Assembly: GCA_023053545.1 (NCBI GenBank) | Contig: JAKZAN010000139.1 | Location: 1 to 64,000, forward strand | DNA length: 64,000 nt | Source of the DNA: Lepidurus packardi | Taxonomy: Eukaryota; Arthropoda; Branchiopoda; Notostraca; Triopsidae | Direction: 5' to 3' | Shown here: positions 1 to 35,874 of the stretch, one piece after another | Position numbering within the stretch: the stretch's first letter is position 1 | How the letters are laid out: the number at the start of each line of letters is the position of its first letter | Position numbers and translations under genes: made by a program | Notes under the pieces: model-generated | The model's database searches: none | Seen by the model: only the letters and a program-made list of their open reading frames with translations | Told to the model about the DNA's origin: nothing

Positions 1-3000
1 AAATCTTATTGAAATTACACTGAAATTTAATTGAAATTTCGTTGAAATATGCTTGTAATCTTAACTGAAATTTCAATGAAATTTCTTTGAAATTTGCTTG
101 TAATTTTACCTGAAATTTCCTCGAAATCTTATTGAAATTACACTGAAATTTCGTTGAAATTTCGTTGAAATATGCTTGTAATTTTACCTGAAATTTCAAT
201 GAAATTTCCTTGAAATTTGATTGTAATTTTACCTGAAATTTCAACGAATTTTCCTTGAAATTTGCATGTAATTTTACCTGAAATTTCCTCGAAATCTTAT
301 TGAAATTAGACTGAAACTTCAATGAAATTTCCTTGAAATTTGCTTGTAATTTTACCTGAAATTTCCTCGAAATCTTATTGAAATTACACTGAAATTTCAT
401 TGAAATTTCGTTGAAATATGCTTGTAATTTTACCTCAAATTTCAATGAAATTTCCTTGAAATTTGCTTGTAATTTTACCTGAAATTTCTTCGAAATCTTA
501 TTGAAATTACACAGAAACTTCAATGAAATTTAATTGAAATTTGCTTGTAATTTTATCTGAAATTTCCTCGAAATCTTATTGAAATTGCACTGAAATTTCA
601 TTGAAATTTCGTTGAAATATGCTTTTAATTTTACCTGAAATTTCAATGAAATTTCATTGAAATTTGCATGTAATTTTATCTGAAATTTCCTCGAAATCTT
701 ATTGAAATTACACTGAAATTTAATTGAAATTTCGTTGAAATATGCTTGTAATTTTACCTTAAATTTCAATGAAATTTCCTTGAAATTTGCTTGTAATTTA
801 ACCTGAAATTTCAATGAAATTTCCTTGAAATTTGTTTGTAATTTTACAAGAAATTTCCTTGAAATCTTATTGAAATTACACTGAAATTTCACTGAAATTT
901 CGTTGAAATATGCTTGTAATTTTAAATCAAATTTCAATGAAATTTCCTTGAAATTTGCTTGTAATTTTACCTGAAATTTCCTCGTAATCTTATTGAAATT
1001 ACACTGAAATTTCATTGAAATTTCGTTGAAATATGCTTGTAATTTTACCTCAAATTTCAATGAAATTTCCTTGAAATTTGCTTGTAATTTTACCTGAAAT
1101 TTCTTCGAAATCTTATTGAAATTACACTGAAACTTCAATGAAATTTCCTTGCAATTAGCTTGTAATTTTATCTGAAATTTCCTCGAAATCTTATTGAAAT
1201 TACACTGAAATTTCATTGAAATTTCGTTGAAATATGCTTGTAATTTTACTTGAAATTTCAATGAAATTTCATTGAAATTTACTTGTAATTTTATTTTAAA
1301 TTTCCTCGAAATCTTATTGAAATTACACTGAAATTTCATTGAAATTTCGTTGAAATATGCTTGTAATTTTACCTGAAATTTCAATGAAATTTCTTTGAAA
1401 TTTGCTTGTAATTTTATCTGAAATTTCCTCGAAATCTTATTGAAATTACACTGAAATTTCATTGAAATTTCGTTGAAATATGCTTGTAATTTTACCTGAA
1501 ATTTCAATGAAATTTCATTGAAATTTACTTGTAATTTTATCTTAAGTTTCCTCGAAATCTTATTGAAATTACACTGAAATTTCATTGAAATTTCGTTGAA
1601 ATATGCTTGTAATTTTACCTGAAATTTCCTCGAAATCTTATTGAAATTACACTGAAATTTCATTGAAATTTCGTTGAAATATGCTTGTAATTTTACCCGA
1701 AATTTCAATGAAATTTTCTTGAAATTTGCTTGTGATTTTACCTGAAATTTCCCTGAAATTTGCTTGTAATTTTAACTGAAATTTCTTCGAAATCTTATTG
1801 AAATTACACTGAAATTTCATTGAAATTTCGTTGAAATATGCTTGTAATTTTACCTGAAATTTCAATGAAATTTCATTGAAATTTGCTTGTAATTTTACCT
1901 GAAATTTCCTCGAAATCTTATTAAATTACACTGAAATTTCCTTGAAATTTCGTTGAAATATGCTTGCAATTTTACCTGAAATTTCAATGAAATTTTCTTG
2001 AAATTTGCTTGTAATTTTACCTGAAATTTCCCTGAAATTTGCTTGTAATTTTACCTGAAATTTCCTCGAAATCTTATTGAAATTACACTGAAATTTCATT
2101 GAAATTTCGTTGAAATATGCTTGTAATTTTACCTCAAATTTCAATGTAATTTCGTTGAAATTTGCTTGTAATTTTACCTGAAATTTCTTCGAAATCTTAT
2201 TGAAATTACACTGAAACTTCAATTAAATTTCCTTGAAATTTGCTTGTAATTTTACCTGAAATTTCAATGAAATTTTCTTGAAATTTGCTTGTAATTTTAC
2301 CTGAAATTTCCCTGAAATTTGCTTGTAATTTTAACTGAAATTTCTTCGAAATCTTATTGAAATTACACTGAAATTTCATTGAAATTTCGTTGAAATATGC
2401 TTGTAATTTTACCTGAAATTGCAATGAAATTTCATTGAAATTTGCTTGTAATTTTACCTGAAATTTCCTCGAAATCTTATTGGAATTTGCTTGTAATTTT
2501 ACCTGAAATTTCCTCGAAATCTTATTGAAATTTCATTGAAATTTCGTTGAAATATGCTTGTAATTTTACCTGAAATTTCAATGAAATTTCCTTGAAATTT
2601 GCTTGTAATTTTACCTGAAATTTCCTCGAAATCTTATTGAAATTACACTGAAATTTCCTTGAAATTTCGTTGAAATATGCTTGTAATTTTACCTGAAATT
2701 TCAATGAAATTTCCTTGAAATTTGCTTGTAATTTTACCTGAAACTTCCTCGAAATCTTATTGAAATTACACTGAAATTTCATTGAAATTTCGTTGAAATA
2801 TGCTTGTAATTTTACCTGAAATTTCAATGAAATTTCCTTGAAATTTGCTTGTAATTTTACCTGAAATTTCCTCGAAATCTTATTGAAATTACACTGAAAC
2901 TTCAATGAGATTTGCTTGAAATTTGCTTGTAATTTTACCTGAAATTTCCTCGAAATCTTATTGAAATTGCACTAAAATTTCATTGAAATTTCGTTGAAAT

Positions 3001-3119
3001 ATGCTTGTAATTTTACCTCAAATTTCAAAGAAATTTCCTTGAAATTTGATTGTAATTTTACCTGAAATTTCCTCGTAATCTTATTGAAATTACACTGAAA
3101 TTTAATTGAAATTTCGTTG

Positions 3120-3193
3120 AAATATGCTTGTAATTTTACCTGAAATTTCAATGGAATTTCATTGAAATTTCAGGTAAAATTACAAGCATATTT
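3120..3193. repeat. Satellite foldback palindrome 1
   Basis: Two 34-bp arms, perfectly inverted, flank the 6-bp centre gaattt. The right arm is a reversed piece of satellite that puts tacaagcata, the complement of the usual tatgcttgta, on the plus strand. The array then resumes in the normal orientation with the marker word aaagacattt. Confidence 0.9.
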
Positions 3194-3734
3194 TACCTGA
3201 AATTTCAAAGACATTTCCTTGAAATTTCATTGAAATTTCGTTGAAATTTGATTTTAATTTTACCTGAAATTTCCTCGTAATCTTATTGAAATTACACTGA
3301 AATTTCATTGAAATTTCGTTGAAATATGCTTGTAATTTTACCTGAAATTTCAATGAAATTTCCTTGGAATTTGCTTGTATTTTTACTTGAAATTTCCTAG
3401 AAATCTTATTGAAATTACACTGAAATTTCATTGAAATTTCGTTGAAATATGCTTGTAATTTTACCTGAAATTTCCTCGAAATCTTATTGAAATTACACTG
3501 AAATTTCATTGAAATTTCGTTGAAATATGCTTGTAATTTTACCTGAAATTTCAATGAAATTTCCTTAAAATCTTATTGAAATTACACTGAAATTTCATTG
3601 AAATTTCGTTCAAATATGCTTGTAATTTTACCTCAAATTTCAAAGAAATTTCTTAGAAATTTGATTGTAATTTTACCTTAAATTTCCTCGTAATCTTATT
3701 GAAATTACACTGAAATTTCATTGAAATTTCGTTG

Positions 3735-3808
3735 AAATATGCTTGTAATTTTACCTGAAATTTCAATGGAATTTCATTGAAATTTCAGGTAAAATTACAA
3801 GCATATTT
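3735..3808. repeat. Satellite foldback palindrome 2
   Basis: Same 34-bp arms and gaattt centre as at 3120, and the same marker word aaagacattt downstream. Confidence 0.9.
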
Positions 3809-6800
3809 TACCTGAAATTTCAAAGACATTTCCTTCAAATTTGCTTGTAATTTCCCTGAAATTTGCTTGTAATTTTACCTGAAATTTCCTCAAAATCTTA
3901 TTGAAATTACACTGAAATTTCAATGAAATTTCGTTGAAATATGCTTGTAATTTTACCTGAAATTTCAATGAAATTTCCTTGAAATCTTATTGAAATTACA
4001 CTGAAATTTCATTGAAATTTCGTTGAAATATGCTTGAAATTTTACCTGAAATTTCAATGAAATTTTCTTGGAATTTCCTTTTAATTTCCCTGAAATTTGC
4101 TTGTAATTTTACCTGAAATTTCCTCGAAATCTTATTGAAATTTCCTTGAAATTTGCTTGTAATTTTACCTGAAATTTCCTCGAAATCTTATTGAAATTAC
4201 ACTGAAACTTCAATGAGATTTGCTTGAAATTTGCTTGTAATTTTACCTGAAATTTCCTCGAAATCTTATTGAAATTACATTAAAATTTCATTGAAATTTC
4301 GTTGAAATATGCTTGTAATTTTACCTGAAATTTCAATGAAATTTCCTTGAAATTTGCTTGTAATTTTACCTGAAATTTCTTCGAAATCTTATTGAAATTA
4401 CACAGAAACTTCAATGAAATTTCCTTGAAATTTGCTTGTAATTTTACCTGAAATTTCGTCGAAGTCTTATTGAAATTACACTGAAATTTCATTGAAATTT
4501 CGTTGAAATATGCTCGTAATTTTACCTGAAATTTCAAAAAAAATTTCCTTGAAATTTGCTTGTAATTTTACCTGAAATTTCCTCGAAATCTTATTGAAAT
4601 TACACTGAAATTTCATTGAAATTTCTTTGAAATATGCTTGTAATTTTACCTCAAATTTCAATGAAATTTCCTTGAAATTTGCTTGTAATTTTACCTGAAA
4701 TTTCTTCGAAATCTTATTGAAATTACACTGAAACTTCAATGAAATTTCCTTGAAATTTGCTTGTAATTTTATCTGAAATTTAATCGAAATCTTATTGAAA
4801 TTACACTGAAATTTCATTGAAATTTCGTTGAAATATGCTTGTAATTTTACCTGAAATTTCAATGAAATTTCATTGAAATTTACTTCTAATTTTATCTTAA
4901 ATTTCCTCGAAATCTTATTGAAATTACACTGAAATTTCATTGAAATTTCGTTGAAATATGCTTGTAATTTTAACTGAAATTTCAATAAAATTTCTTTGAA
5001 ATTTGCTTGTAATTTTACCTGAAATTTCCTCGAAATCTTATTGAAATTACACTGAAATTTCGTTGAAATTTCGTTGAAATATGCTTGTAATTTTACCTGA
5101 AATTTCAATGAAATTTCCTTGAAATTTGATTGTAATTTTACCTGAAATTTCAACGAAATTTCCTTGAAATTTGCATGTACTTTTACCTGAAATTTCCTCG
5201 AAATCATATTGAAATTAGACTGAAACTTCAATGAAATTTCCTTGAAATTTGCTTGTAATTTTACCTGAAATTTCTTCGAAATCTTATTGAAATTACACTG
5301 AAACTTCAATGAAATTTCCTTGAAATTTGCTTGTAATCTTATCTGAAATTTCCTCGAAATCTTATTGAAATTACACTGAAATTTCATTGAAATTTCGTAG
5401 AAATATGCTTGTAATTTTACCTGAAATTTCAATGAAATTTCATTGAAATTTATTTGTAATTTTATCTTAAATTTCCTCGAAATCTTATTGAAATTACACT
5501 GAAATTTAATTGAAATTTCGTTGAAATATGCTTGTAATCTTAACTGAAATTTCAATGAAATTTCTTTGAAATTTGCTTGTAATTTTACCTGAAATTTCCT
5601 CGAAATCTTATTGAAATTACACTGAAATTTCGTTGAAATTTCGTAGAAATATGCTTGTAATTTTACCTGAAATTTCAATGAAATTTCCTTGAAATTTGAT
5701 TGTAATTTTACCTGAAATTTCAACGAATTTTCCTTGAAATTTGCATGTAATTTTACCTGAAATTTCCTCGAAATCTTATTGAAATTAGACTGAAACTTCA
5801 ATGAAATTTCCTTGAAATTTGCTTGTAATTTTACCTGAAATTTCCTCGAAATCTTATTGAAATTACACTGAAATTTCATTGAAATTTCGTTGAAATATGC
5901 TTGTAATTTTACCTCAAATTTCAATGAAATTTCCTTGAAATTTGCTTGTAATTTTACCTGAAATTTCTTCGAAATCTTATTGAAATTACACAGAAACTTC
6001 AATGAAATTTAATTGAAATTTGCTTGTAATTTTATCTGAAATTTCCTCGAAATCTTATTGAAATTGCACTGAAATTTCATTGAAATTTCGTTGAAATATG
6101 CTTTTAATTTTACCTGAAATTTCAATGAAATTTCATTGAAATTTGCATGTAATTTTATCTGAAATTTCCTCGAAATCTTATTGAAATTACACTGAAATTT
6201 AATTGAAATTTCGTTGAAATATGCTTGTAATTTTACCTTAAATTTCAATGAAATTTCCTTGAAATTTGCTTGTAATTTAACCTGAAATTTCAATGAAATT
6301 TCCTTGAAATTTGCTTGTAATTTTACAAGAAATTTCCTTGAAATCTTATTGAAATTACACTGAAATTTCACTGAAATTTCGTTGAAATATGCTTGTAATT
6401 TTAAATCAAATTTCAATGAAATTTCCTTGAAATTTGCTTGTAATTTTACCTGAAATTTCCTCGTAATCTTATTGAAATTACACTGAAATTTCCTTGAAAT
6501 TTCGTTGAAATATGCTTGTAATTTTACCTCAAATTTCAATGAAATTTCCTTGAAATTTGCTTGTAATTTTACCTGAAATTTCTTCGAAATCTTATTGAAA
6601 TTACACTGAAACTTCAATGAAATTTCCTTGCAATTAGCTTGTAATTTTATCTGAAATCTCCTCGAAATCTTATTGAAATTACACTGAAATTTCATTGAAA
6701 TTTCGTTGAAATATGCTTGTAATTTTACTTGAAATTTCAATGAAATTTCATTGAAATTTACTTGTAATTTTATCTTAAATTTCCTCGAAATCTTATTGAA

Positions 6801-8598
6801 ATTACACTGAAATTTCATTGAAATTTCGTTGAAATATGCTTGTAATTTTACCTGAAATTTCAATGAAATTTCTTTGAAATTTGCTTGTAATTTTATCTGA
6901 AATTTCCTCGAAATCTTATTGAAATTACACTGAAATTTCATTGAAATTTCGTTGAAATATGCTTGTAATTTTACCTGAAATTTCAATGAAATTTCATTGA
7001 AATTTACTTGTAATTTTATCTTAAGTTTCCTCGAAATCTTATTGAAATTACACTGAAATTTCATTGAAATTTCGTTGAAATATGCTTGTAATTTTACCTG
7101 AAATTTCCTCGAAATCTTATTGAAATTACACTGAAATTTCATTGAAATTTCGTTGAAATATGCTTGTAATTTTACCCGAAATTTCAATGAAATTTTCTTG
7201 AAATTTGCTTGTGATTTTACCTGAAATTTCCCTGAAATTTGCTTGTAATTTTAACTGAAATTTCTTCGAAATCTTATTGAAATTACACTGAAATTTCATT
7301 GAAATTTCGTTGAAATATGCTTGTAATTTTACCTGAAATTTCAATGAAATTTCATTGAAATTTGCTTGTAATTTTACCTGAAATTTCCTCGAAATCTTAT
7401 TAAATTACACTGAAATTTCCTTGAAATTTCGTTGAAATATGCTTGCAATTTTACCTGAAATTTCAATGAAATTTTCTTGAAATTTGCTTGTAATTTTACC
7501 TGAAATTTCCCTGAAATTTGCTTGTAATTTTACCTGAAATTTCCTCGAAATCTTATTGAAATTACACTGAAATTTCATTGAAATTTCGTTGAAATATGCT
7601 TGTAATTTTACCTCAAATTTCAATGTAATTTCCTTGAAATTTGCTTGTAATTTTACCTGAAATTTCTTCGAAATCTTATTGAAATTACACTGAAACTTCA
7701 ATTAAATTTCCTTGAAATTTGCTTGTAATTTTACCTGAAATTTCAATGAAATTTTCTTGAAATTTGCTTGTAATTTTACCTGAAATTTCCCTGAAATTTG
7801 CTTGTAATTTTAACTGAAATTTCTTCGAAATCTTATTGAAATTACACTGAAATTTCATTGAAATTTCGTTGAAATATGCTTGTAATTTTACCTGAAATTG
7901 CAATGAAATTTCATTGAAATTTGCTTGTAATTTTACCTGAAATTTCCTCGAAATCTTATTGGAATTTGCTTGTAATTTTACCTGAAATTTCCTCGAAATC
8001 TTATTGAAATTTCATTGAAATTTCGTTGAAATATGCTTGTAATTTTACCTGAAATTTCAATGAAATTTCCTTGAAATTTGCTTGTAATTTTACCTGAAAT
8101 TTCCTCGAAATCTTATTGAAATTACACTGAAATTTCCTTGAAATTTCGTTGAAATATGCTTGTAATTTTACCTGAAATTTCAATGAAATTTCCTTGAAAT
8201 TTGCTTGTAATTTTACCTGAAACTTCCTCGAAATCTTATTGAAATTACACTGAAATTTCATTGAAATTTCGTTGAAATATGCTTGTAATTTTACCTGAAA
8301 TTTCAATGAAATTTCCTTGAAATTTGCTTGTAATTTTACCTGAAATTTCCTCGAAATCTTATTGAAATTACACTGAAACTTCAATGAGATTTGCTTGAAA
8401 TTTGCTTGTAATTTTACCTGAAATTTCCTCGAAATCTTATTGAAATTGCACTAAAATTTCATTGAAATTTCGTTGAAATATGCTTGTAATTTTACCTCAA
8501 ATTTCAAAGAAATTTCCTTGAAATTTGATTGTAATTTTACCTGAAATTTCCTCGTAATCTTATTGAAATTACACTGAAATTTAATTGAAATTTCGTTG

Positions 8599-8672
8599 AA
8601 ATATGCTTGTAATTTTACCTGAAATTTCAATGGAATTTCATTGAAATTTCAGGTAAAATTACAAGCATATTT
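8599..8672. repeat. Satellite foldback palindrome 3
   Basis: Copy of the 3120 palindrome, displaced by 5,479 bp with the duplicated segment. Confidence 0.9.
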
Positions 8673-9213
8673 TACCTGAAATTTCAAAGACATTTCCTTG
8701 AAATTTCATTGAAATTTCGTTGAAATTTGATTTTAATTTTACCTGAAATTTCCTCGTAATCTTATTGAAATTACACTGAAATTTCATTGAAATTTCGTTG
8801 AAATATGCTTGTAATTTTACCTGAAATTTCAATGAAATTTCCTTGGAATTTGCTTGTATTTTTACTTGAAATTTCCTAGAAATCTTATTGAAATTACACT
8901 GAAATTTCATTGAAATTTCGTTGAAATATGCTTGTAATTTTACCTGAAATTTCCTCGAAATCTTATTGAAATTACACTGAAATTTCATTGAAATTTCGTT
9001 GAAATATGCTTGTAATTTTACCTGAAATTTCAATGAAATTTCCTTAAAATCTTATTGAAATTACACTGAAATTTCATTGAAATTTCGTTCAAATATGCTT
9101 GTAATTTTACCTCAAATTTCAAAGAAATTTCTTAGAAATTTGATTGTAATTTTACCTTAAATTTCCTCGTAATCTTATTGAAATTACACTGAAATTTCAT
9201 TGAAATTTCGTTG

Positions 9214-9287
9214 AAATATGCTTGTAATTTTACCTGAAATTTCAATGGAATTTCATTGAAATTTCAGGTAAAATTACAAGCATATTT
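9214..9287. repeat. Satellite foldback palindrome 4
   Basis: Copy of the 3735 palindrome, displaced by 5,479 bp with the duplicated segment. Confidence 0.9.
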
Positions 9288-10106
9288 TACCTGAAATTTC
9301 AAAGACATTTCCTTCAAATTTGCTTGTAATTTCCCTGAAATTTGCTTGTAATTTTACCTGAAATTTCCTCAAAATCTTATTGAAATTACACTGAAATTTC
9401 AATGAAATTTCGTTGAAATATGCTTGTAATTTTACCTGAAATTTCAATGAAATTTCCTTGAAATCTTATTGAAATTACACTGAAATTTCATTGAAATTTC
9501 GTTGAAATATGCTTGAAATTTTACCTGAAATTTCAATGAAATTTTCTTGGAATTTCCTTTTAATTTCCCTGAAATTTGCTTGTAATTTTACCTGAAATTT
9601 CCTCGAAATCTTATTGAAATTTCCTTGAAATTTGCTTGTAATTTTACCTGAAATTTCCTCGAAATCTTATTGAAATTACACTGAAACTTCAATGAGATTT
9701 GCTTGAAATTTGCTTGTAATTTTACCTGAAATTTCCTCGAAATCTTATTGAAATTACATTAAAATTTCATTGAAATTTCGTTGAAATATGCTTGTAATTT
9801 TACCTGAAATTTCAATGAAATTTCCTTGAAATTTGCTTGTAATTTTACCTGAAATTTCCTCAAATCTTATTGAAATTACACTGAAACTTCAATGAGATTT
9901 GCTTGAAATTTGCTTGTAATTTTACCTGAAATTTCCTCGAAATCTTATTGAAATTACACTAAAATTTCATTGAAATTTCGTTGAAATATGCTTGTAATTT
10001 TACCTCAAATTTCAAAGAAATTTCCTTGAAATTTGATTGTAATTTTACCTGAAATTTCCTCGTAATCTTATTGAAATTACACTGAAATTTAATTGAAATT
10101 TCGTTG

Positions 10107-10180
10107 AAATATGCTTGTAATTTTACCTGAAATTTCAATGGAATTTCATTGAAATTTCAGGTAAAATTACAAGCATATTT
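10107..10180. repeat. Satellite foldback palindrome 5
   Basis: 34-bp inverted arms around gaattt, in the same local context as at 3120. Confidence 0.9.
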
Positions 10181-10554
10181 TACCTGAAATTTCAAAGACA
10201 TTTCCTTGAAATTTCATTGAAATTTCGTTGAAATTTGATTTTAATTTTACCTGAAATTTCCTCGTAATCTTATTGAAATTACACTGAAATTTCATTGAAA
10301 TTTCGTTGAAATATGCTTGTAATTTTACCTGAAATTTCAATGAAATTTCCTTGGAATTTGCTTGTAATTTTACTTGAAATTTCCTAGAAATCTTATTGAA
10401 ATTACACTGAAATTTCATTGAAATTTCGTTGAAATATGCTTGTAATTTTAACTGAAATTTCAATGAAATTTCCTTGAAATTTGCTTGTAATTTTACTTGA
10501 AATTTCTTAGAAATCTTATTGAAATTACACTGAAATTTCATTGAAATTTCGTTG

Positions 10555-10628
10555 AAATATGCTTGTAATTTTACCTGAAATTTCAATGGAATTTCATTGA
10601 AATTTCAGGTAAAATTACAAGCATATTT
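10555..10628. repeat. Satellite foldback palindrome 6
   Basis: 34-bp inverted arms around gaattt. It follows the previous palindrome by 448 bp. Confidence 0.9.
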
Positions 10629-11203
10629 TACCTGAAATTTCAAAGACATTTCCTTGAAATTTCATTGAAATTTCGTTGAAATTTGATTTTAATTTTACCT
10701 GAAATTTCCTCGTAATCTTATTGAAATTACACTGAAATTTCATTGAAATTTCGTTGAAATATGCTTGTAATTTTACCTGAAATTTCAATGAAATTTCCTT
10801 GGAATTTGCTTGTAATTTTACTTGAAATTTCCTAGAAATCTTATTGAAATTACACTGAAATTTCATTGAAATTTCGTTGAAATATGCTTGTAATTTTACC
10901 TGAAATTTCCTCGAAATCTTATTGAAATTACACTGAAATTTCATTGAAATTTCTTTGAAATATGCTTGAAATTTTACCTCAAATTTCAAAGAAATTTCCT
11001 TGAAATTTGATTGTAATTTTACCTGAAATTTCCTCGTAATCTTATTGTAATTACACTGAAATTTCATTGAAATTTCGTTGAAATATGCTTGTAATTTTAC
11101 CTGAAATTTCAATGAAATTTCCTTGAAATTTGCTTGTAATTTTACATGAAATTTCCTCGAAATCTTATTGAAATTACACTGAAATTTCATTGAAATTTCG
11201 TTG

Positions 11204-11277
11204 AAATATGCTTGTAATTTTACTTGAAATTTCAATGAAATTTCATTGAAATTTCAGGTAAAATTACAAGCATATTT
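11204..11277. repeat. Satellite foldback palindrome 7 (self-complementary centre)
   Basis: The centre here is aaattt, itself self-complementary, so pairing continues through the middle. One arm position mismatches (tacttg against caggta). Confidence 0.88.
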
Positions 11278-13046
11278 TACCTGAAATTTCAAAGACATTT
11301 CCTTGAAATTTCCTTGAAATTTCGTTGAATTTTGCTTGTAATTTTACCTGAAATTTCAATGAAATTTCCTTGAAATTTGCTTGTAATTTTACCTGAAATT
11401 TCCTCGAAATCTTATTGAAATTACACTGAAACTTCAATGAAATTTGCTTGAAATTTGCTTGTAATTTTACCTGAAATTTCCTCGAAATCTTATTGAAATT
11501 ACACTAAAATTTCATTGAAATTTCGTTGAAATATGCTTGTAATTTTACCTGAAATTTCAATGAAATTTCCTTGAAATTTGATTGTAATTTTACCTGAAAT
11601 TTCCTCGTAATCTTATTGAAATTACACTGAAATTTCATTGAAATTTCGTTGAAATATGCTTGTAATTTTACCTGAAATTTCAATGAAATTTCCTTGAAAT
11701 TTACTTGTAATTTTACCTGAAATATCCTCGAAATCTTATTGAAATTTCCTTGAAATTTGCTTGTAATTTTACTTGAAATTTCTTAGAAATCTTATTGAAA
11801 TTACACTGAAATTTCATTGAAATTTCGTTGAAATATGCTTGTAATTTTACCTGAAATTTCCTCGAAATCTTATTGAAATTACACTGAAATTTCATTGAAA
11901 TTTCGTTGAAATATGCTTGTAATTTTACCTGAAAATTCAATGAAATTTCCTTGAAATTTGCTTGTAATTTTACTTGAAATTTCCTAGAAATCTTATTGAA
12001 ATTACACTGAAATTTCATTGAAATTTCGTTGAAATATGCTTGTAATTTTACCTGAAATTTCAATGAAATTTCCTTGAAATTTGCTTGTAATTTTACCTGA
12101 AATATCCTCGAAATCTTATTGAAATTTCCTTGAAATTTGCTTGTAATTTTACTTGAAATTTCTTAGAAATCTTATTGAAATTACACTGAAATTTCATTGA
12201 AATTTCGTTGAAATATGCTTGTAATTTTACCTGAAATTTCCTCGAAATCTTATTGAAATTACACTGAAATTTCATTGAAATTTCGTTGAAATATGCTTGT
12301 AATTTTACCTGAAAATTCAATGAAATTTCCTTGAAATTTGCTTGTAATTTTACTTGAAATTTCCTAGAAATCTTATTGAAATTACACTGAAATTTCATTG
12401 AAATTTCGTTGAAATATGCTTGTAATTTTAACTGAAATTTCCTCGAAATCTTATTGAAATTACACTGAAATTTCATTGAAATTTCGTTGAAATATGCTTG
12501 TAATTTTACCTGAAATTTCCTCGAAATCTTATTGAAATTACACTGAAATTTCATTGAAATTTCGTTGAAATATGCTTGTAATTTTACCTGAAAATTCAAT
12601 GAAATTTCCTTGAAATTTGCTTGTAATTTTACTTGAAATTTCCTAGAAATCTTATTGAAATTACACTGAAATTTCATTGAAATTTCGTTGAAATATGCTT
12701 GTAATTTTACCTGAAATTTCCTCGAAATCTTATTGAAATTACACTGAAATTTCATTGAAATTTCGTTGAAATATGCTTGTAATTTTACCTGAAATTTCAA
12801 TGAAATTTCCTTGAAATCCTATTGAAATTACACTGAAATTTCATTGAAATTTCGTTGAAATATGCTTGTAATTTTACCTGAAATTTCCTCTAAATCTTAT
12901 TGAAATTACACTGAAATTTCATTGAAATTTCGTTGAAATATGCTTGTAATTTTAACTGAAATTTCAATGAAATTTCCTTCAAAGTTGCTTGTAATTTCCC
13001 TGAAATTTGCTTGTAATTTTACCTGAAATTTCTTCAAAATCTTATT

Positions 13047-15409
13047 ATTATTTATTGCAACATATAAGGCTTTATAAAGCCTCTTTGTAACTATTTATCT
13101 CTACGAAATTGTAAGGGGTCAAACATTTTTGAGCCAAAATGCTCATCTAGTGATTTTTTAAATGTCTGTGTGGAGGAGAGTTTGATCACTTTTTCTGGTA
13201 GGCTATTCCATTCATCTACGATTCGGTTTTGGAAGGTCCAGCGGCCTACATCTTTGAAGAATCGTTCTGTTTTAAGTTTTAGGATATGGCCACGACAATT
13301 GCTTTGGTTGAAGCACAATATTTGTTCGGCGGACACATTTTCATAATAGGCGTGACACAATTTAAACGCTTCTATCAGGTCACCCCGTAGAAACCTATAT
13401 GCCAGAGTTGGCAGGTTCAGGGCTTTAAGTCTATCTGTATAGGAGAGGTGACGAAGATTTCCAGGAAATTTGGTTATTCTCCTTTGAACTTTTTCTAGGG
13501 CTTCTAGGTCCCTGTTGAAGAACGGGCGCGTTACACAGTGGCCGTACTCAAGAATAGGTCTAACGAGCGTTTTATACAGCATGGACAACATTGTTTTATC
13601 CACACAGGTGAAGTTTCGTCTAATTAGTCCCGCCACTCTGGTTGCTTTAGCCGCAATGCTCGCATAATGTTGTGAAAATTAAGTTTTGTGTCAATCAGGA
13701 CTCCAAGATCCCGTTCACAGTCGGTCTTGGCAATTACTTCGCCACCCAGGACATAACTACTTGTGACAGATTCATTTCCAATCCTCAGTTGGTGACACTT
13801 TGGGATGTTCAATTCCATCAGCCATTTCTCCATCCAAAGCTCAATACTTTTAATGTCATCTTGGAGCTTAATCATATCCTCCGGGCAGTTAATTACGTTA
13901 CTAATTTTGGTATCATCCGCGTAAAGAAAGACTGTCGACTCAATTTTGTCTGTTAGGTCATTTATATATATGTTAAATAGTAACGGACCCAGAACCGAGC
14001 CCTGGGGAACTCCGCTTAGGACATCTATCACTAAGTCACTGACTTCACCTTCAACACAAACTGACTGCGTCCGATTCGTTAAGAAACTTTTAATCCATTT
14101 AGTCAGCGTGGGTGAGGTACTAGGACCGAGACCGTAGTCAACTAATTTTTGAATAAGTCTACCATGGGGTACTTTGTCGAACGCCTTTTTAAGGTCCAGA
14201 TATATAACATCAGTTTGGAGCCCCTTATCCGCATTCTTTTTCCAGTTCTCGACAGCAAGTAAAAGTTGACTTTCAGCGGAGCGTCCAGGTAAGAATCCGA
14301 ACTGTTTATCTGATAATACTTTTCTGTGTCTAAATTCGGTCAAAATGTGGTCAGCAATAATTGATTCGAGGATTTTGCACGTTACACAAGTTAAACTAAT
14401 AGGCCTATAATTTGAGGGTAAGTCACGTTTCCCGGATTTAAAGATTGGGGTAACAACAGCACTATTCCATATTGTCGGGAGTTGGCCAGAGGAAATGGAT
14501 TTTCGATAAATGAAAGTAAGCGGTTTGACTAGGACAGCAGCAGCTTCTTTGAGGACTTTAGGGTGTAACATGTCCGGGCCAGGGGACTTGGATGTATCCA
14601 ACCTGTTAAGTTTCTCTAAAACCATTGACGCGCAAATATTGAGTGGGGGAAAAGGATCTTCCGAGACACAAGAATCAACCTCTGTTATATCTATTTCGCG
14701 CGTAAATACAACAGAGAAGTGTCGGTTTAGTACATTTGCCTTTTCAATCGGTTCAGAAACAGTAAGTCTCGTGGTTTCATCTAGTAATGGAGGTATAATG
14801 GTTCCGTTCTTTCTTTTCGCATTGACATGTTTCCAGAAGATTTTGGGATTGTCTTTTAAATTTTTTGCCAGTAGACTTTCTCTTCTGTTTACTTCCTGTC
14901 TGGTGGCTTTGCGCACTTTATTGCGGAAGCGTCGGTAATTTAACTCCAATGAAGAGTCATCTTTGTTTGATTTGAAGGCATTCCAGGCATCCCTTTTTTC
15001 GGCTATTAATTTCAATGTTTCCCTCGAAACTGCTGCTCTACTACTATGTCGTCTAGGCGGTATGAAGCAATATTCCACAGATTTTACTGTGCGCAGGAAC
15101 TTGCTGTACAGATCATCCATGGATTCTAAGTCTTGAAATGCTTGATCCCAGTTGACTTTGGAAAGGACTCTTCTTATCTCCTGGTAGTTGCCTTTATAGT
15201 AGTTCGGCCGTTGTATATTCTTCTTTTCCAGTCGGTTAGTTTGCAGGATAAAAGTTATTACAGCATGATCCGATTTTCCGATTGGCGACTGGACTTCAAC
15301 ATATGTCACAACCTCGGGGTTACTTACAAGTAGAAGATCGAGCAAGCTCGGTTTGTTTGTTCCACGGACTCGAGTGGGTTCTTCAATTAATTGGTCAAGG
15401 AAGTTATTG
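13047..15409 (-). mobile_element. LINE copy A, CR1/Jockey-group, 5'-truncated
   Basis: A non-LTR retrotransposon fragment embedded in satellite. Its 3' end (low coordinate) has an AT-only tail, a 16-bp palindrome at 13067-13082 and about 45 bp of 3' UTR. Its 5' end stops inside the endonuclease domain at ttattg (15404-15409), six bases that also belong to the satellite word cttattgaaatt. Copies B, C and D stop at exactly the same base. It is 2,363 bp, one base shorter than the others because of the deletion in its ORF. Confidence 0.93.
13067..13082. other. 16-bp palindrome at the LINE 3' end
   Basis: aggctttataaagcct is perfectly self-complementary and lies between the ORF2 stop and the AT-rich tail. 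The same element occurs in copies B-E (for B at 18076-18091). A 3'-terminal stem-loop followed by a short AT tail fits a reverse-transcriptase recognition site in LINE RNA; that role is inferred. Confidence 0.7.
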
Positions 15410-15507
15410 AAATTACACTGAAATTTCATTGAAATTTCGTTGAAATATGCTTGTAATTTTACGTGAAATTTCCTCGAAATCTTATTGAAATTACACTGAA
15501 ATTTCAT
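13091..15507 (-). pseudogene. LINE A ORF2 remnant: satellite-fused reverse transcriptase, frameshifted
   Basis: Reading from 15507, about 33 residues of satellite-encoded peptide run in frame into LINE ORF2. Only the end of the endonuclease remains (the SDH motif), followed by a reverse transcriptase of the non-LTR type. Motif A is DLKKAFD, the SGVPQGS motif follows, and the catalytic YADD is at residue 529 (codons ending at 13921). Near 13672 one G is missing compared with copies B-E (gttgtg against gttggtg), so the frame breaks after the RT palm. The C-terminal conserved region, with FKK and WNSLP motifs, continues in another frame from 13636 to the TAG at 13091. The product would be non-functional, and without an endonuclease it could not mobilise itself anyway. 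Confidence 0.9.
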
Positions 15508-18055
15508 TGAAATTTCGTTGAAATATGCTTGTAATTTTACCTGAAATTTCTATGAAATTTCCTTGAAATTTCCTTGGAATTTTACCTGAAATTTCCTCGA
15601 AATCTTATTGAAATTACACTGAAATTTCATTGAAATTTCGTTGAAATATGCTTGTAATTTTACCTGAAATTTCCTCGAAATCTTATTGAAATTACACTGA
15701 AATTTCATTGAAATTTCGTTGAAATATGCTTGTAATTTTACCTGAAATTTCAATGAAATTTCCTTGGAATTTCCTTGGAATTTCCCTGAAATTTGCTTGT
15801 AATTTTACCTGAAATTTCCTCGAAATCTTATTGAAATTACACTGAAATTTCATTGAAATTTCGTTGAAATATGCTTGTAATTTTAACTGAAATTTCAATG
15901 AAATTTCCTTGAAATTTGCTTGTAATTTTACCTGAAATTTCCTCGAAATCTTATTGAAATTACACTGAAACTTCAATGAGATTTGCTTGAAATTTGCTTG
16001 TAATTTTACCTGAAATTTCCTCGAAATCTTATTGAAATTACACTAAAATTTCATTGAAATTTAGTTGAAATATGCTTGTAATTTTACCTCAAATTTCAAA
16101 GAAATTTCCTTGAAATTTGATTGTAATTTTACCTGAAATTTTCTCGTAATCTTATTGAAATTACACTGAAATTTCATTGAAATTTCGTTGAAATATGCTT
16201 GTAATTTTACCTGAAATTTCAATGAAATTTCCTTGAAATTTGCTTGTAATTTTACCTGAAATTTCCTCGAAATCTTATTGAAATTACACTGAAATTTCAT
16301 TGAAATTTCGTTGAAATATGCTTGTAATTTTACTTGAAATTTCAATGAAATTTCATTGAAATTTCAGGTAAAATTACAAGCATATTTTACCTGAAATTTC
16401 AAAGACATTTCCTTGAAATTTCATTGAAATTTCGTTGAAATTTGCTTGTAATTTTACCTGAAATTTCAATGAAATTTCCTTGAAATTTGCTTGTAATTTT
16501 ACCTGAAATTTCCTCGAAATCTTATTGAAATTACACTGAAACTTCAATGAAATTTGCTTGAAATTTGCTTGTAATTTTACCTGAAATTTCCTCGAAATCT
16601 TATTGAAATTACACTAAAATTTCATTGAAATTTCGTTGAAATATGCTTGTAATTTAACCTCAAATTTCAAAGAAATTTCCTTGAAATTTGATTGTAATTT
16701 TACCTGAAATTTCCTCGTAATCTTATTGAAATTACACTGAAATTTCATTGAAATTTCGTTGAAATATGCTTGTAATTTTACCTGAAATTTCAATGAAATT
16801 TCCTTGAAATTTGATTGTAATTTTACTTGAAATTTCTTAGAAATCTTATTGAAATTACACTGAAATTTCATTGAAATTTCGTTGAAATATGCTTATAATT
16901 TTACCTGAAATTTCCTCGAAATCTTATTGAAATTACACTGAAATTTTATTGAAATTTCATTGAAATATGCTTGTAATTTTACCTGAAAATTCAATGAAAT
17001 TTCCTTGAAATTTGCTTGTAATTTTACTTGAAATTTCCTAGAAATCTTATTGAAATTACACTGAAATTTCATTGAAATTTCGTTGAAATATGCTTGTAAT
17101 TTTACCTGAAATTTCCTCGAAATCTTATTGAAATTACACTGAAATTTCACTGAAATTTCGTTGAAATATGCTTGTAATTTTACCTGAAATTTCCTCGAAA
17201 TCTTATTGAAATTACACTGAAATTTCATTGAAATTTCGTTGAAATATGCTTGTAATTTTACCTGAAATTTCAATGAAATTTCCTTGAAATTTGCTTGTAA
17301 TTTTACCTGAAATATCCTCGAAATCTTATTGAAATTTCCTTGAAATTTGCTTGTAATTTTACTTGAAATTTCTTAGAAATCTTATTGAAATTACACTGAA
17401 ATTTCATTGAAATTTCGTTGAAATATGCTTGTAATTTTACCTGAAATTTCCTCGAAATCTTATTGAAATTACACTGAAATTTCATTGAAATTTCGTTGAA
17501 ATATGCTTGTAATTTTACCTGAAAATTCAATGAAATTTCCTTGAAATTTGCTTGTAATTTTACTTGAAATTTCCTAGAAATCTTATTGAAATTACACTGA
17601 AATTTCATTGAAATTTCGTTGAAATATGCTTGTAATTTTACCTGAAATTTCCTCGAAATCTTATTGAAATTACACTGAAATTTCATTGAAATTTCGTTGA
17701 AATATGCTTGTAATTTTACCTGAAATTTCCTCGAAATCTTATTGAAATTACACTGAAATTTCATTGAAATTTCGTTGAAATATGCTTGTAATTTTACCTG
17801 AAATTTCAATGAAATTTCCTTGAAATCCTATTGAAATTACACAGAAATTTCATTGAAATTTCGTTGAAATATGCTTGTAATTTTACCTGAAATTTCCTCG
17901 AAATCTTATTGAAATTACACTGAAATTTCATTGAAATTTCGTTGAAATATGCTTGTAATTTTAACTGAAATTTCAATGAAATTTCCTTCAAAGTTGCTTG
18001 TAATTTCCCTGAAATTTGCTTGTAATTTTACCTGAAATTTCTTCAAAATCTTATT
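15410..18055. repeat. Satellite block 2, spacer of the 5,010-bp unit
   Basis: 2,646 bp of the same satellite between LINE copies A and B. It has the same length as block 5 (33229-35874) and almost the same sequence, so LINE plus spacer forms a 5,010-bp repeat unit. It carries one foldback palindrome. No gene is seen. Confidence 0.93.
16314..16387. repeat. Satellite foldback palindrome 8
   Basis: 34-bp inverted arms with an aaattt centre and one mismatch (tacttg against caggta). Confidence 0.88.
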
Positions 18056-20419
18056 ATTATTTATTGCAACATATAAGGCTTTATAAAGCCTCTTTGTAAC
18101 TATTTATCTCTACGAAATTGTAACGGGTCAAACATTTTTGAGCCAAAATGCTCATCTAGTGATTTTTTAAATGTCTGTGTGGAGGAGAGTTTGATCACTT
18201 TTTCTGGTAGGCTATTCCATTCATCTACGATTCGGTTTTGGAAGGTCCAGCGGCCTACATCTTTGAAGAATCGTTCTGTTTTAAGTTTTAGGATATGGCC
18301 ACGACAATTGCTTTGGTTGAAGCACAATATTTGTTCGGCGGACACATTTTCATAATAGGCGTGACACAATTTAAACGCTTCTATCAGGTCACCCCGTAGA
18401 AACCTATATGCCAGAGTTGGCAGGTTCAGGGCTTTGAGTCTATCTGTATAGGAGAGGTGACGAAGATTTCCAGGAAATTTGGTTATTCTCCTTTGAACTT
18501 TTTCTAGGGCTTCTAGGTCCCTGTTGAAGAACGGGCGCGTTACACAGTGGCCGTACTCAAGAATAGGTCTAACGAGCGTTTTATACAGCATGGACAACAT
18601 TGTTTTATCCACACAGGTGAAGTTTCGTCTAATTAGTCCCGCCACTCTGGTTGCTTTAGCCGCAATGCTCGCATAATGTTGGTGAAAATTAAGTTTTGTG
18701 TCAATCAGGACTCCAAGATCCCGTTCACAGTCGGTCTTGGCAATTACTTCGCCACCCAGGACATAACTACTTGTGACAGATTCATTTCCAATCCTCAGTT
18801 GGTGACACTTTGGGATGTTCAATTCCATCAGCCATTTCTCCATCCAAAGCTCAATACTTTTAATGTCATCTTGGAGCTTAATCATATCCTCCGGGCAGTT
18901 AATTACGTTACTAATTTTGGTATCATCCGCGTAAAGAAAGACTGTCGACTCAATTTTGTCTGTTAGGTCATTTATATATATGTTAAATAGTAACGGACCC
19001 AGAACCGAGCCCTGGGGAACTCCGCTTAGGACATCTATCACTAAGTCACTGACTTCACCTTCAACACAAACTGACTGCGTCCGATTCGTTAAGAAACTTT
19101 TAATCCATTTAGTCAGCGTGGGTGAGGTACTAGGACCGAGACCGTAGTCAACTAATTTTTGAATAAGTCTACCATGGGGTACTTTGTCGAACGCCTTTTT
19201 AAGGTCCAGATATATAACATCAGTTTGGAGCCCCTTATCCGCATTCTTTTTCCAGTTCTCGACAGCAAGTAAAAGTTGACTTTCAGCGGAGCGTCCAGGT
19301 AAGAATCCGAACTGTTTATCTGATAATACTTTTCTGTGTCTAAATTCGGTCAAAATGTGGTCAGCAATAATTGATTCGAGGATTTTGCACGTTACACAAG
19401 TTAAACTAATAGGCCTATAATTTGAGGGTAAGTCACGTTTCCCGGATTTAAAGATTGGGGTAACAACAGCACTATTCCATATTGTCGGGAGTTGGCCAGA
19501 GGAAATGGATTTTCGATAAATGAAAGTAAGCGGTTTGACTAGGACAGCAGCAGCTTCTTTGAGGACTTTAGGGTGTAACATGTCCGGGCCAGGGGACTTG
19601 GATGTATCCAACCTGTTAAGTTTCTCTAAAATCATTGACGCGCAAATATTGAGTGGGGGAAAAGGATCTTCCGAGACACAAGAATCAACCTCTGTTATAT
19701 CTATTTCGCGCGTAAATACAACAGAGAAGTGTCGGTTTAGTACATTTGCCTTTTCAATCGGTTCAGAAACAGTAAGTCTCGTGGTTTCATCTAGTAATGG
19801 AGGTATAATGGTTCCGTTCTTTCTTTTCGCATTGACATGTTTCCAGAAGATTTTGGGATTGTCTTTTAAATTTTTTGCCAGTAGACTTTCTCTTCTGTTT
19901 ACTTCCTGTCTGGTGGCTTTGCGCACTTTATTGCGGAAGCGTCGGTAATTTAACTCCAATGAAGAGTCATCTTTGTTTGATTTGAAGGCATTCCAGGCAT
20001 CCCTTTTTTCGGCTATTAATTTCAATGTTTCCCTCGAAACTGCTGCTCTACTACTATGTCGTCTAGGCGGTATGAAGCAATATTCCACAGATTTTACTGT
20101 GCGCAGGAACTTGCTGTACAGATCATCCATGGATTCTAAGTCTTGAAATGCTTGATCCCAGTTGACTTTGGAAAGGACTCTTCTTATCTCCTGGTAGTTG
20201 CCTTTATAGTAGTTCGGCCGTTGTATATTCTTCTTTTCCAGTCGGTTAGTTTGCAGGATAAAAGTTATTACAGCATGATCCGATTTTCCGATTGGCGACT
20301 GGACTTCAACATATGTCACAACCTCGGGGTTACTTACAAGTAGAAGATCGAGCAAGCTCGGTTTGTTTGTTCCACGGACTCGAGTGGGTTCTTCAATTAA
20401 TTGGTCAAGGAAGTTATTG
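18056..20419 (-). mobile_element. LINE copy B, 5'-truncated
   Basis: 2,364 bp, with the same 5' and 3' junctions as copies A, C and D and the same satellite on both sides. Its reading frame is unbroken. Confidence 0.93.
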
Positions 20420-20517
20420 AAATTACACTGAAATTTCATTGAAATTTCGTTGAAATATGCTTGTAATTTTACGTGAAATTTCCTCGAAATCTTATTGAAA
20501 TTACACTGAAATTTCAT
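18100..20517 (-). CDS. Satellite-LINE chimeric ORF: endonuclease-less reverse transcriptase
   Basis: An uninterrupted 805-codon ORF. Residues 1-33 are the satellite peptide repeat; LINE ORF2 begins near residue 34. What remains of the APE-type endonuclease is its last part, with S79-D80-H81. The reverse transcriptase follows: an SPGPD motif, NYRPISL, motif A with D438, SGVPQGS at 498-504, and YADD at 529-532 (codons 18922-18933) supplying the other two catalytic aspartates. The C-terminal segment has conserved RFF, WNSLP and FKK motifs typical of CR1-like ORF2. All RT catalytic residues are present, but most of the endonuclease is missing, so it could not nick a target by itself. The ATG lies in satellite, just after an in-frame TAG. 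There is no evidence that it is expressed. Confidence 0.8.
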   Translation of the reverse strand: MKFQCNFNKISRKFHVKLQAYFNEISMKFQCNFNNFLDQLIEEPTRVRGTNKPSLLDLLLVSNPEVVTYVEVQSPIGKSDHAVITFILQTNRLEKKNIQRPNYYKGNYQEIRRVLSKVNWDQAFQDLESMDDLYSKFLRTVKSVEYCFIPPRRHSSRAAVSRETLKLIAEKRDAWNAFKSNKDDSSLELNYRRFRNKVRKATRQEVNRRESLLAKNLKDNPKIFWKHVNAKRKNGTIIPPLLDETTRLTVSEPIEKANVLNRHFSVVFTREIDITEVDSCVSEDPFPPLNICASMILEKLNRLDTSKSPGPDMLHPKVLKEAAAVLVKPLTFIYRKSISSGQLPTIWNSAVVTPIFKSGKRDLPSNYRPISLTCVTCKILESIIADHILTEFRHRKVLSDKQFGFLPGRSAESQLLLAVENWKKNADKGLQTDVIYLDLKKAFDKVPHGRLIQKLVDYGLGPSTSPTLTKWIKSFLTNRTQSVCVEGEVSDLVIDVLSGVPQGSVLGPLLFNIYINDLTDKIESTVFLYADDTKISNVINCPEDMIKLQDDIKSIELWMEKWLMELNIPKCHQLRIGNESVTSSYVLGGEVIAKTDCERDLGVLIDTKLNFHQHYASIAAKATRVAGLIRRNFTCVDKTMLSMLYKTLVRPILEYGHCVTRPFFNRDLEALEKVQRRITKFPGNLRHLSYTDRLKALNLPTLAYRFLRGDLIEAFKLCHAYYENVSAEQILCFNQSNCRGHILKLKTERFFKDVGRWTFQNRIVDEWNSLPEKVIKLSSTQTFKKSLDEHFGSKMFDPLQFRRDK

Positions 20518-24857: not shown

Positions 24858-24877
24858 AAATTACACTGAAATTTCAT
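22538..24877 (-). CDS. Reverse transcriptase ORF of LINE copy C
   Basis: 779 codons, all in one frame. The start lies in satellite, but because a 78-bp block is missing only about seven satellite-encoded residues precede the LINE part. The order of domains is as in copy B: an endonuclease remnant with SDH, the RT palm with DLKKAFD and SGVPQGS, YADD at residue 503, then the CR1-like C-terminal region. It differs from copy D by very few residues, for example ISPLL in place of IPPLL. Without the catalytic N-terminal part of the endonuclease it should be unable to move independently. Confidence 0.8.
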   Translation of the reverse strand: MKFQCNFNNFLDQLIEEPTRVRGTNKPSLLDLLLVSNPEVVTYVEVQSPIGKSDHAVITFILQTNRLEKKNIQRPNYYKGNYQEIRRVLSKVNWDQAFQDLESMDDLYSKFLRTVKSVEYCFIPPRRHSSRAAVSRETLKLIAEKRDAWNAFKSNKDDSSLELNYRRFRNKVRKATRQEVNRRESLLAKNLKDNPKIFWKHVNAKRKNGTIISPLLDETTRLTVSEPIEKANVLNRHFSVVFTREIDITEVDSCVSEDPFPPLNICASMVLEKLNRLDTSKSPGPDMLHPKVLKEAAAVLVKPLTFIYRKSISSGQLPTIWNSAVVTPIFKSGKRDLPSNYRPISLTCVTCKILESIIADHILTEFRHRKVLSDKQFGFLPGRSAESQLLLAVENWKKNADKGLQTDVIYLDLKKAFDKVPHGRLIQKLVDYGLGPSTSPTLTKWIKSFLTNRTQSVCVEGEVSDLVIDVLSGVPQGSVLGPLLFNIYINDLTDKIESTVFLYADDTKISNVINCPEDMIKLQDDIKSIELWMEKWLMELNIPKCHQLRIGNESVTSSYVLGGEVIAKTDCERDLGVLIDTKLNFHQHYASIAAKATRVAGLIRRNFTCVDKTMLSMLYKTLVRPILEYGHCVTRPFFNRDLEALEKVQRRITKFPGNLRHLSYTDRLKALNLPTLAYRFLRGDLIEAFKLCHAYYENVSAEQILCFNQSNCRGHILKLKTERFFKDVGRWTFQNRIVDEWNSLPEKVIKLSSTQTFKKSLDEHFGSKMFDPLQFRRDK

Positions 24878-35869: not shown

Positions 35870-35874
35870 TTATT
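35870..35874. other. Possible target-site duplication of LINE E, 3' side
   Basis: ttatt here matches ttatt at 40400-40404 on the other side of the element. The rest of the satellite word continues there as gaaatt. The match is short and lies in AT-rich sequence, so it is only suggestive. Confidence 0.4.

What the first reader, a model, noticed from the sequence alone, without database searches (positions are those of the whole stretch)
1..13046. Satellite made of self-complementary 11-bp words in helical phase: candidate for strongly curved DNA
The base unit is GAAATTTCNTT. GAAATTTC is its own reverse complement, and the AAATTT tract returns about every 11 bp, with one 12-bp word per block. 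AnTn tracts phased near the helical repeat are known to bend DNA in one direction. Tens of kilobases of this could form a superhelical path or position nucleosomes. An 11-bp phase, slightly more than 10.5, predicts a coil and not a flat circle. The same units fill all seven blocks (1-13046 to 56680-64000).
Basis: partly seen in the sequence, partly recalled or inferred. Interest (0 to 1): 0.75.

Follow-up and report, generated by a model that had tools for sequence, protein, structure and literature searches.

The report
AT-rich 11-bp-word satellite, mildly bent
This is a long, apparently non-coding tandem-repeat array, seen in chromosome-end repeat zones of an arthropod-like genome, whose short AT-rich words recur slightly too slowly to make DNA curve steadily, so it is probably ordinary satellite DNA rather than a strongly curved or nucleosome-placing one.

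Summary
Seven blocks, about 36.9 kb of the window, are one satellite of 11-bp words with regular 12-bp words (3285 words: 2702 of 11 bp, 577 of 12, 6 of 10; mean 11.174). Only 37.9% of words are self-complementary. The main unit is 123 bp (45 + 78), copied in larger blocks up to 99.9% alike that can carry retroelements. Two wedge models that reproduce known bent and straight controls (one after its tilt sign was set by them) predict more local bending than shuffled DNA (43 vs 20, 35 vs 24 degrees per 31 bp); a third, which fails the controls, predicts less. The period is 0.67 bp longer than a helical turn, so bends fall out of register: in block 1, A-tract coherence at 10.5 bp drops to the shuffled level by 147 bp, and at the nucleosomal 10.2 bp below it. 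The predicted local path is a shallow right-handed corkscrew. Best reading: non-coding satellite of chromosome-scaffold ends, near a 20-bp and a 10-bp satellite, spread by duplication. If sequence matters, the likeliest cue is a narrow A/T minor groove once per word (AAAT 1308 vs 167 per 10 kb in inserts), readable by AT-hook proteins (inferred).

The parts
1..13046 (+). Satellite block 1 (11/12-bp words; its first 4379 bp recur at offset 5479, 99.86% alike)
13047..15403 (-). 5'-truncated endonuclease/reverse-transcriptase non-LTR retroelement, copy 1 (its reading frame is broken relative to copies 2-4)
15404..18041 (+). Satellite block 2
18042..20413 (-). Same truncated retroelement with the same two junctions, copy 2 (RVT_1, E 1.6e-33)
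20414..22479 (+). Satellite block 3
22480..24853 (-). Same truncated retroelement, copy 3
24854..30850 (+). Satellite block 4
30851..33222 (-). Same truncated retroelement, copy 4
33223..35860 (+). Satellite block 5
35861..40425 (-). Longer copy of the same retroelement (stop-to-stop frames 35919-38387, 38388-38804, 38805-40154; the first has RVT_1 E 1.8e-33 and Exo_endo_phos_2 E 2.8e-12, the other two no Pfam match); same 3' junction as the truncated copies
40426..43625 (+). Satellite block 6
43624..56680 (-). Two head-to-tail BEL/Pao-type retrotransposon copies, offset 6356 bp, 99.64% alike over 6651 bp (frames of copy 2: Peptidase_A17, RVT_1, DUF1759; frame of copy 1: DUF5641)
56680..64000 (+). 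Satellite block 7, continuing beyond the window
3164..3193 (.). Short inverted segment of the array (about 30 bp); near-identical contexts at about 3788, 8652, 9267, 10160, 10608, 11257, 16367, 25737, 28036, 29176 and 34186, so probably one event spread by duplication

Best explanation
It is an apparently non-coding, AT-rich satellite DNA with higher-order repeats in repeat-filled ends of chromosome scaffolds of an arthropod-like genome, in the same zones as two other short-word satellites and with retroelements inside it. SHOWN: the tandem and higher-order structure, near-identical long copies (recent duplication by unequal exchange or a similar process), its presence at the left ends of two large scaffolds and near that of a third, no clear protein-coding constraint, and an A/T core in nearly every word. 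INFERRED: the array is packaged as heterochromatin, and what a protein would read, if anything, is the AAAT/AATT core in the minor groove (AT-hook or HMGA-like proteins), one site per word, drifting about 22-23 degrees per word around a 10.5-bp helix. Bending and palindromy are side effects of that core. The 11.17-bp period makes a shallow, locally right-handed corkscrew and is not tuned for planar curvature or for wrapping histones.
For: Among 16 repeat pairs of at least 1500 bp, identity is 97.9-99.94%; the longest (6748 bp) spans retroelement, satellite and retroelement as one block. Block grammar ABCD and EFGHIJD. An exact 24-mer of the satellite occurs 6439 times in the genome, about 0.79 Mb if the window's density of 8.1 per kb holds (extrapolated). 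On scaffold C3 its hits run from 42 to 8309 at the left end while TTAGG repeats end the scaffold at the right; C6 begins with it; on C4 hits start at 519 kb (listing cut there) between 10-bp-satellite hits at 406-474 and 608-1166 kb. AAAT 1308 and AAATT 1140 per 10 kb against 167 and 62 in the inserts. PMC13371928 (passages seen) describes AnT runs with narrow minor grooves in mouse major satellite (AAAT 114 per 10 kb) as AT-hook sites; its counting may differ from mine. Against coding: 94 of 577 blocks break the frame. Against tuning of the phase: 577 words of 12 bp, only 6 of 10 bp.
Against: No chromatin, binding or cytological data exist here; heterochromatin and AT-hook reading are inferences. 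The coding test is not clean: of 521 changes in the open minus frame 76.6% are non-synonymous (73.5% expected), 19.8% synonymous (17.0%) and 3.6% stop-making (9.5%), so stops are rarer than expected; the changes are not independent. C3's satellite end could be an assembly stop and not a chromosome end; short TTAGG runs also occur inside scaffolds and in a small contig. Few scaffold ends were seen, C1's left end carries neither this nor the other two satellites in its first 200 bases and C5's first 200 bases read N. About 31 Mb lies outside the six large scaffolds. A 2.1-kb array of related 11-bp words lies inside C1, apparently in an intron, so such words are not confined to repeat-rich ends.
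Confidence: 0.8

Rival explanations
1. Strongly curved DNA: phased A3T3 tracts form a sustained superhelical path that compacts chromatin or places nucleosomes.
For: Local predicted bend is 1.4 to 2.3 times shuffled in two control-passing models in 7 of 7 blocks, and De Santis keeps the array shorter than shuffled even over 250 bp (0.79-0.80 vs 0.89-0.90); in block 1 A-tract coherence over 45 bp at h=10.5 is 0.79 vs 0.38 shuffled.
Against: In block 1 coherence at 10.5 falls to 0.16 (shuffled 0.19) by 147 bp and at 10.2 to 0.10 (shuffled 0.22) by 126 bp; the Olson set predicts less bend than shuffled, though it fails the controls; 10-bp words that would correct the phase are 6 of 3285; a neighbouring satellite has a 10.16-bp period, so no single phase is kept.
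Confidence: 0.12
2. Dyad-symmetry (non-B DNA) centromeric satellite: the palindromic words let either strand fold into long hairpins or cruciforms that help specify centromeric chromatin or feed small-RNA silencing.
For: Inverted repeats (arm 7, gap up to 8) 53.3 per kb vs 4.1 in 5 shuffles of block 1; fold z-scores -5.0 to -14.0 in 10 of 10 satellite stretches against -0.6 to 1.4 in 7 of 7 insert stretches (40 shuffles each); a 246-nt strand folds mostly into one hairpin (z -9.9 as DNA, -13.6 as RNA). Such symmetries are described at centromeres of some species (PMC9070824; PMC13081366; passages seen).
Against: When the columns of all words are permuted alike, which keeps the tandem order, the excess shrinks to z -1.5 to -2.0, with 2 to 6 of 60 controls at least as good in each of five stretches. 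One stretch of the 20-bp satellite shows no excess on that control (19 of 60). An AT-rich C1 flank also has more inverted repeats than shuffled (6.9 vs 0.9 per kb) and one of four C1 flank stretches folds at z -2.3. 62% of words are not self-complementary. PMC9070824 finds dyads enriched at only one of five Drosophila centromeres.
Confidence: 0.2
3. Protein-coding repeat: the minus strand encodes a long repetitive protein (units of 15 and 26 residues).
For: Main block lengths 45, 78 and 123 bp are multiples of 3; one minus frame of the consensus is fully open; open frames reach 787 codons inside block 7; stop-making changes are rarer than expected (3.6 vs 9.5%).
Against: 94 of 577 blocks break the frame and every frame of every block holds stops; synonymous changes are barely in excess (19.8 vs 17.0% expected); the four Pfam families listed for one satellite translation have no stretch passing on its own.
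Confidence: 0.02

Closest known systems
AT-rich insect pericentromeric satellites with predicted curvature (for example tenebrionid beetles), and mouse major satellite (its curvature recalled)
   Same: AT-rich tandem arrays with A/T runs and above-random predicted bend; the review PMC8122249 (passages seen) calls curvature from A-T tracts a strong feature of several insect pericentric satellites, with a role not yet established
   Different: Word period is 11.17 bp, so the bend does not accumulate; the base unit is an 11-bp word; location in heterochromatin not tested here
Drosophila short-word satellites (5-12 bp words, PMC8122249; AATAACATAG and AATAT arrays bound by Prod and D1, PMC9070824; passages seen)
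   Same: Very short AT-rich words in long arrays with retroelements among them; D1 is an AT-hook protein (recalled)
   Different: Here about ten distinct words keep an order in a 123-bp unit; no binding protein known
Dyad-symmetry satellites (Kasinathan and Henikoff survey as cited in PMC9070824; Tribolium madens macro-dyads, PMC13081366; passages seen)
   Same: High density of short inverted repeats, strong predicted single-strand folding; contigs C184 and C64 hold arrays in opposite orientation
   Different: In the window the arrays run one way apart from twelve copies of one short inverted segment; excess over word-permuted controls is modest; no CenH3 evidence
Bacterial 11-bp AA/TT periodicity (PMC4132750 and PMC7537859; passages seen)
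   Same: A period above 10.5 bp, discussed as fitting underwound, plectonemic DNA
   Different: That is a faint genome-wide bias; this is a tandem satellite of a eukaryote. PMC7537859 disputes the supercoiling explanation

Membership tests
Satellite DNA | Long head-to-tail arrays of a short unit | tested here: met
Satellite DNA | Homogenised by duplication or unequal exchange into higher-order repeats | tested here: met
   16 repeat pairs of at least 1500 bp, 97.9-99.94% alike; grammar
Satellite DNA | Non-coding | tested here: met
   with a reservation, the deficit of stop-making changes
Satellite DNA | Heterochromatic or centromeric/terminal location | tested here: inconclusive
   At the left ends of scaffolds C3 and C6 and at 0.52 Mb of C4; no chromatin data
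Intrinsically curved DNA | A-tracts in register with the 10.5-bp helical repeat | tested here: not met
   Mean word 11.174 bp; coherence at 10.5 at the shuffled level by 147 bp in block 1
Intrinsically curved DNA | Predicted curvature above shuffled sequence | tested here: inconclusive
   Higher in De Santis and in Bolshoy with either tilt sign, lower in Olson, which fails the controls as does Bolshoy with the sign first recalled
Intrinsically curved DNA | Anomalous gel mobility | not testable with these tools
   needs a bench
Nucleosome rotational-positioning sequence | 10.2-bp A/T phasing over about 147 bp | tested here: not met
   Block 1: 0.17 vs 0.20 shuffled over 147 bp, 0.10 vs 0.22 over 126 bp
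Dyad-symmetry centromeric satellite | Excess of short inverted repeats | tested here: met
   53.3 vs 4.1 per kb against shuffles, but only z -1.5 to -2.0 in folding against word-permuted arrays
Dyad-symmetry centromeric satellite | CenH3 association | not testable with these tools
   no chromatin data
AT-hook-read satellite | Dense AnT narrow-groove sites | tested here: met
   AAAT 1308 per 10 kb on both strands vs 167 in inserts; groove width itself not computed
AT-hook-read satellite | Binding by an AT-hook protein | not testable with these tools
   needs a binding assay

The most novel reading that the evidence does not exclude
A torsion-gated curvature satellite: its A3T3 tracts are out of register in relaxed DNA but come into near-perfect register (coherence 0.86-0.88 at every length tested, 45 to 420 bp, block 1) only if the helix is underwound to 11.17 bp per turn, about 6% or a superhelical density near -0.06 (my arithmetic). 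Such an array could resist canonical left-handed nucleosomes, store negative supercoils, or favour particles that wrap DNA right-handed, as once proposed for some CenH3 nucleosomes (recalled), and so mark a centromere by chirality instead of sequence. That a neighbouring satellite has a 10.16-bp period would then mean opposite-handed neighbours in one chromosome end.
Probability: 0.04. Interest if true: 0.8.

Novelty: new member of a known kind. Interest (0 to 1): 0.33.

Why it matters
It shows that a near-helical word period is not enough to call a satellite curved: 0.67 bp of mismatch per turn is predicted to cancel the bend within about one nucleosome. It also gives a natural test set, short-word satellites with periods of about 11.18 and 10.16 bp and one with a 20-bp unit in one genome, for asking whether chromatin cares about helical phase, groove width or self-complementarity.

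Tried and rejected
Coding minus strand: rejected, with the reservation on stops. RNA genes: none over Rfam's gathering scores in the window; no tRNA. Nematode origin: no Col_cuticle_N match (where no control genome rang either, so weak) and no exact (TTAGGC)4; 150 Chitin_bind_4 matches (266 candidates, 150 scored) and (TTAGG)n ending scaffold C3 suggest an arthropod. The Bolshoy wedge set with the tilt sign as first recalled failed both controls, so the sign was flipped to fit them: that model is fitted to the control, not independent. A superhelix fit over 984 bp gave a left-handed large-scale coil while local torsion is right-handed; only the local sign is used. Selection on phase: 9 distinct indel-bearing word variants against 134 substitution variants, with no neutral yardstick, so not used. 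Literature: nine searches. In one search the core 8-mer occurs in 546 papers; the 20 listed, which rank first by number of terms held, hold none of the longer strings of this repeat. Of PMC8122249, PMC13371928, PMC7537859, PMC4132750, PMC9070824 and PMC13081366 I saw found passages only; of all others the title and abstract listing.


Full report
WHAT IS THERE. The window (positions 1-64000 of an 86,251-base contig, C128, in a 108.6-Mb assembly of 344 contigs) is 36.9 kb of one satellite in seven blocks, broken by retroelements. A dynamic-programming parse cuts the blocks into 3285 words: 2702 of 11 bp, 577 of 12 bp, 6 of 10 bp, mean 11.174 bp; over the joined blocks the AA and TT spectra peak at 11.177 bp. 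1242 words carry GAAATTTC and 37.9% are self-complementary. I sorted words into ten types: the commonest blocks are EFGHIJD (78 bp, 170 times) and ABCD (45 bp, 168 times), together 123 bp, followed by variants such as BFGHIJD (35) and EFGABCD (28); the 12-bp word is mostly GTAATTTTACCT or a near variant, with 12 copies of another 12-bp word that belongs to an inverted segment.

HOW IT GREW. Long blocks recur almost unchanged: 6748 bp at offset 17,819 (99.91%), 4379 bp at offset 5479 (99.86%), 5020 bp at offset 12,809 (99.6%); 16 pairs of at least 1500 bp in all, 97.9-99.94% alike. Four 5'-truncated copies of one endonuclease/RT retroelement share both junctions with the satellite, and a longer copy at 35861-40425 shares the 3' junction. 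The simplest reading is one insertion that was later shortened once and copied together with its satellite flanks (inference). Two BEL/Pao copies stand head to tail at 43624-56680, offset 6356 bp, 99.64% alike. One short inverted segment appears in twelve places with nearly the same context.

CODING TEST. Minus-strand frames reach 787 codons within a block, because 45, 78 and 123 are multiples of three and one minus frame of the consensus is open. But 94 of 577 blocks break the frame. Among 521 changes in 105 distinct units (207 ungapped copies) 76.6% are non-synonymous, 19.8% synonymous and 3.6% stop-making, against 73.5, 17.0 and 9.5% expected. The deficit of stops I cannot explain; changes shared by descent make the test weak.

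CURVATURE. Parameters were recalled, so I tested them against recalled gel results: (GA4T4C)n bent, (GT4A4C)n straight. De Santis passes; Bolshoy passes only with the tilt sign reversed; Olson fails. In the two passing sets every one of 7 blocks bends more locally than 10 dinucleotide shuffles each (De Santis 43-44 vs about 20 degrees per 31 bp; Bolshoy 34-36 vs about 24), while two retroelement stretches do not stand out. In Olson block 1 bends less than shuffled (5.3 vs 7.9), and in Bolshoy with the sign first recalled more (40 vs 28). The bend adds up poorly: end-to-end over contour is 0.81-0.87 at 120 bp (shuffled 0.92-0.95); at 250 bp it is 0.79-0.80 vs 0.89-0.90 in De Santis and 0.83-0.85 vs 0.84-0.86 in Bolshoy. 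The same words respaced to 10.5 bp would fall to 0.18 (De Santis) or 0.38 (Bolshoy) at 180 bp, against 0.79 and 0.83 for the native consensus. Free of any wedge model, the vector sum of A-tract positions in block 1 at h = 10.5 is 0.79 over 45 bp, 0.58 over 84, 0.29 over 126 and 0.16 over 147 (shuffled 0.38, 0.26, 0.21, 0.19); at h = 10.2 it is 0.69 over 45 bp and 0.31 over 84 but 0.10 over 126 (shuffled 0.39, 0.27, 0.22); at h = 11.174 it stays 0.86-0.88. Local torsion is positive (right-handed) for the native spacing and negative for 10-bp spacing.

SELF-COMPLEMENTARITY. Inverted repeats are 13 times denser than in shuffles of block 1, and 10 of 10 stretches fold far better than shuffles (z -5.0 to -14.0), unlike 7 insert stretches (-0.6 to 1.4) and 4 C1 flank stretches (-2.3 to 1.6) (for a 246-nt strand). 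Results that weaken this: the C1 flank also has an excess of inverted repeats (6.9 vs 0.9 per kb), and repeats in general fold well here, the C1 intron array at z -4.2, two 20-bp-satellite stretches at -4.9 and -6.3, four 10-bp-satellite stretches at -9.0 to -12.9. The fairer control, permuting the columns of all words alike, leaves z -1.5 to -2.0 for ours (2 to 6 of 60 controls as good in each of five stretches); two stretches of the 10-bp satellite exceed it (0 and 1 of 60), one of the 20-bp satellite does not (19 of 60). So palindromy is real but only mildly beyond what tandem repetition gives.

WHERE IN THE GENOME. A 24-mer of the satellite occurs 6439 times (4341 forward, 2098 reverse), about 0.79 Mb at the window's density (extrapolated). 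Its hits run along the left end of scaffold C3, whose right end is (TTAGG)n, and C6 begins with the satellite. A 20-bp satellite (36-mer 33,252 times) has hits at 13.96-14.04 Mb of the 14.05-Mb C1 (listing cut), starts C4, and in a degenerate form starts C2. C4 holds 20-bp satellite at its start, 10-bp-satellite hits at 406-474 and 608-1166 kb and the 11-bp satellite from 519 kb. Pattern listings are cut at 100 places, so other sites on the large scaffolds are not excluded. The 11-bp array also abuts the 10-bp satellite directly (L045, position 8258). Six scaffolds are 10.7-14.0 Mb; the 15 other contigs whose length I saw are 21-249 kb. At least 150 Chitin_bind_4 matches and TTAGG repeats (many of them short and internal) point to an arthropod; the species is not identified.

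HOW IT MOST LIKELY WORKS. As heterochromatic filler at chromosome ends, maintained by exchange and duplication (inferred). The most conserved stretch of each word is GAAAT, giving an AAAT minor-groove site in most words; AT-hook proteins prefer AA(A/T)T according to PMC13371928 (passages). That reading would explain why the left half is kept while the palindrome decays and why 12-bp words are tolerated, neither of which a constraint on curvature or on a dimer-binding palindrome would predict. It remains an inference.

COMPARISON AND NOVELTY. Curvature from A-T tracts is already a known, functionally open feature of insect satellites (PMC8122249, passages), and dyad symmetries likewise (passages). 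I found no description of this repeat in the nine searches named under Tried and rejected, which cover open-access papers only. It is a new member of a known kind, with an unusual but explicable period.

Noticed in passing
G000:C1:467237-469337 (L047 5237-7337): A 2.1-kb array of TCTTTGAAATC 11-bp words (192 copies), apparently inside an intron of a gene: splice-like CAGGTAAG before and TTTTAG after.
   Followed up: partly
L045 8258-9986 and L037 about 8900-10000: A second satellite of 10-bp words (AAACTGGTTT type, AA/TT period 10.16-10.17) follows the 11-bp array; two stretches of L045 fold better than 59 and 60 of 60 word-permuted controls.
   Followed up: partly
G000 C1 right end, C4 left end (L051), degenerate at C2 left end (L049): A third, very abundant satellite with a 20-bp unit containing the palindrome GAATTAATTC; an exact 36-mer occurs 33,252 times.
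   Followed up: partly
window 43624-56680: Two BEL/Pao retrotransposon copies head to tail, offset 6356 bp, apparently sharing a middle repeat of about 295 bp.
   Followed up: partly
L044 (C184:10001-20000), about 5200-7800; C64 both ends (L035, L036): On C184 the satellite switches orientation across an insertion that reads like another reverse-transcriptase retroelement; on C64 the arrays at the two contig ends are opposed. Macro-dyad-like layouts exist in this genome.
   Followed up: no
window minus strand, 123-bp units: Stop-making changes are 2.6 times rarer than expected in the one open frame of the consensus, with hardly any deficit of other amino-acid changes.
   Followed up: partly
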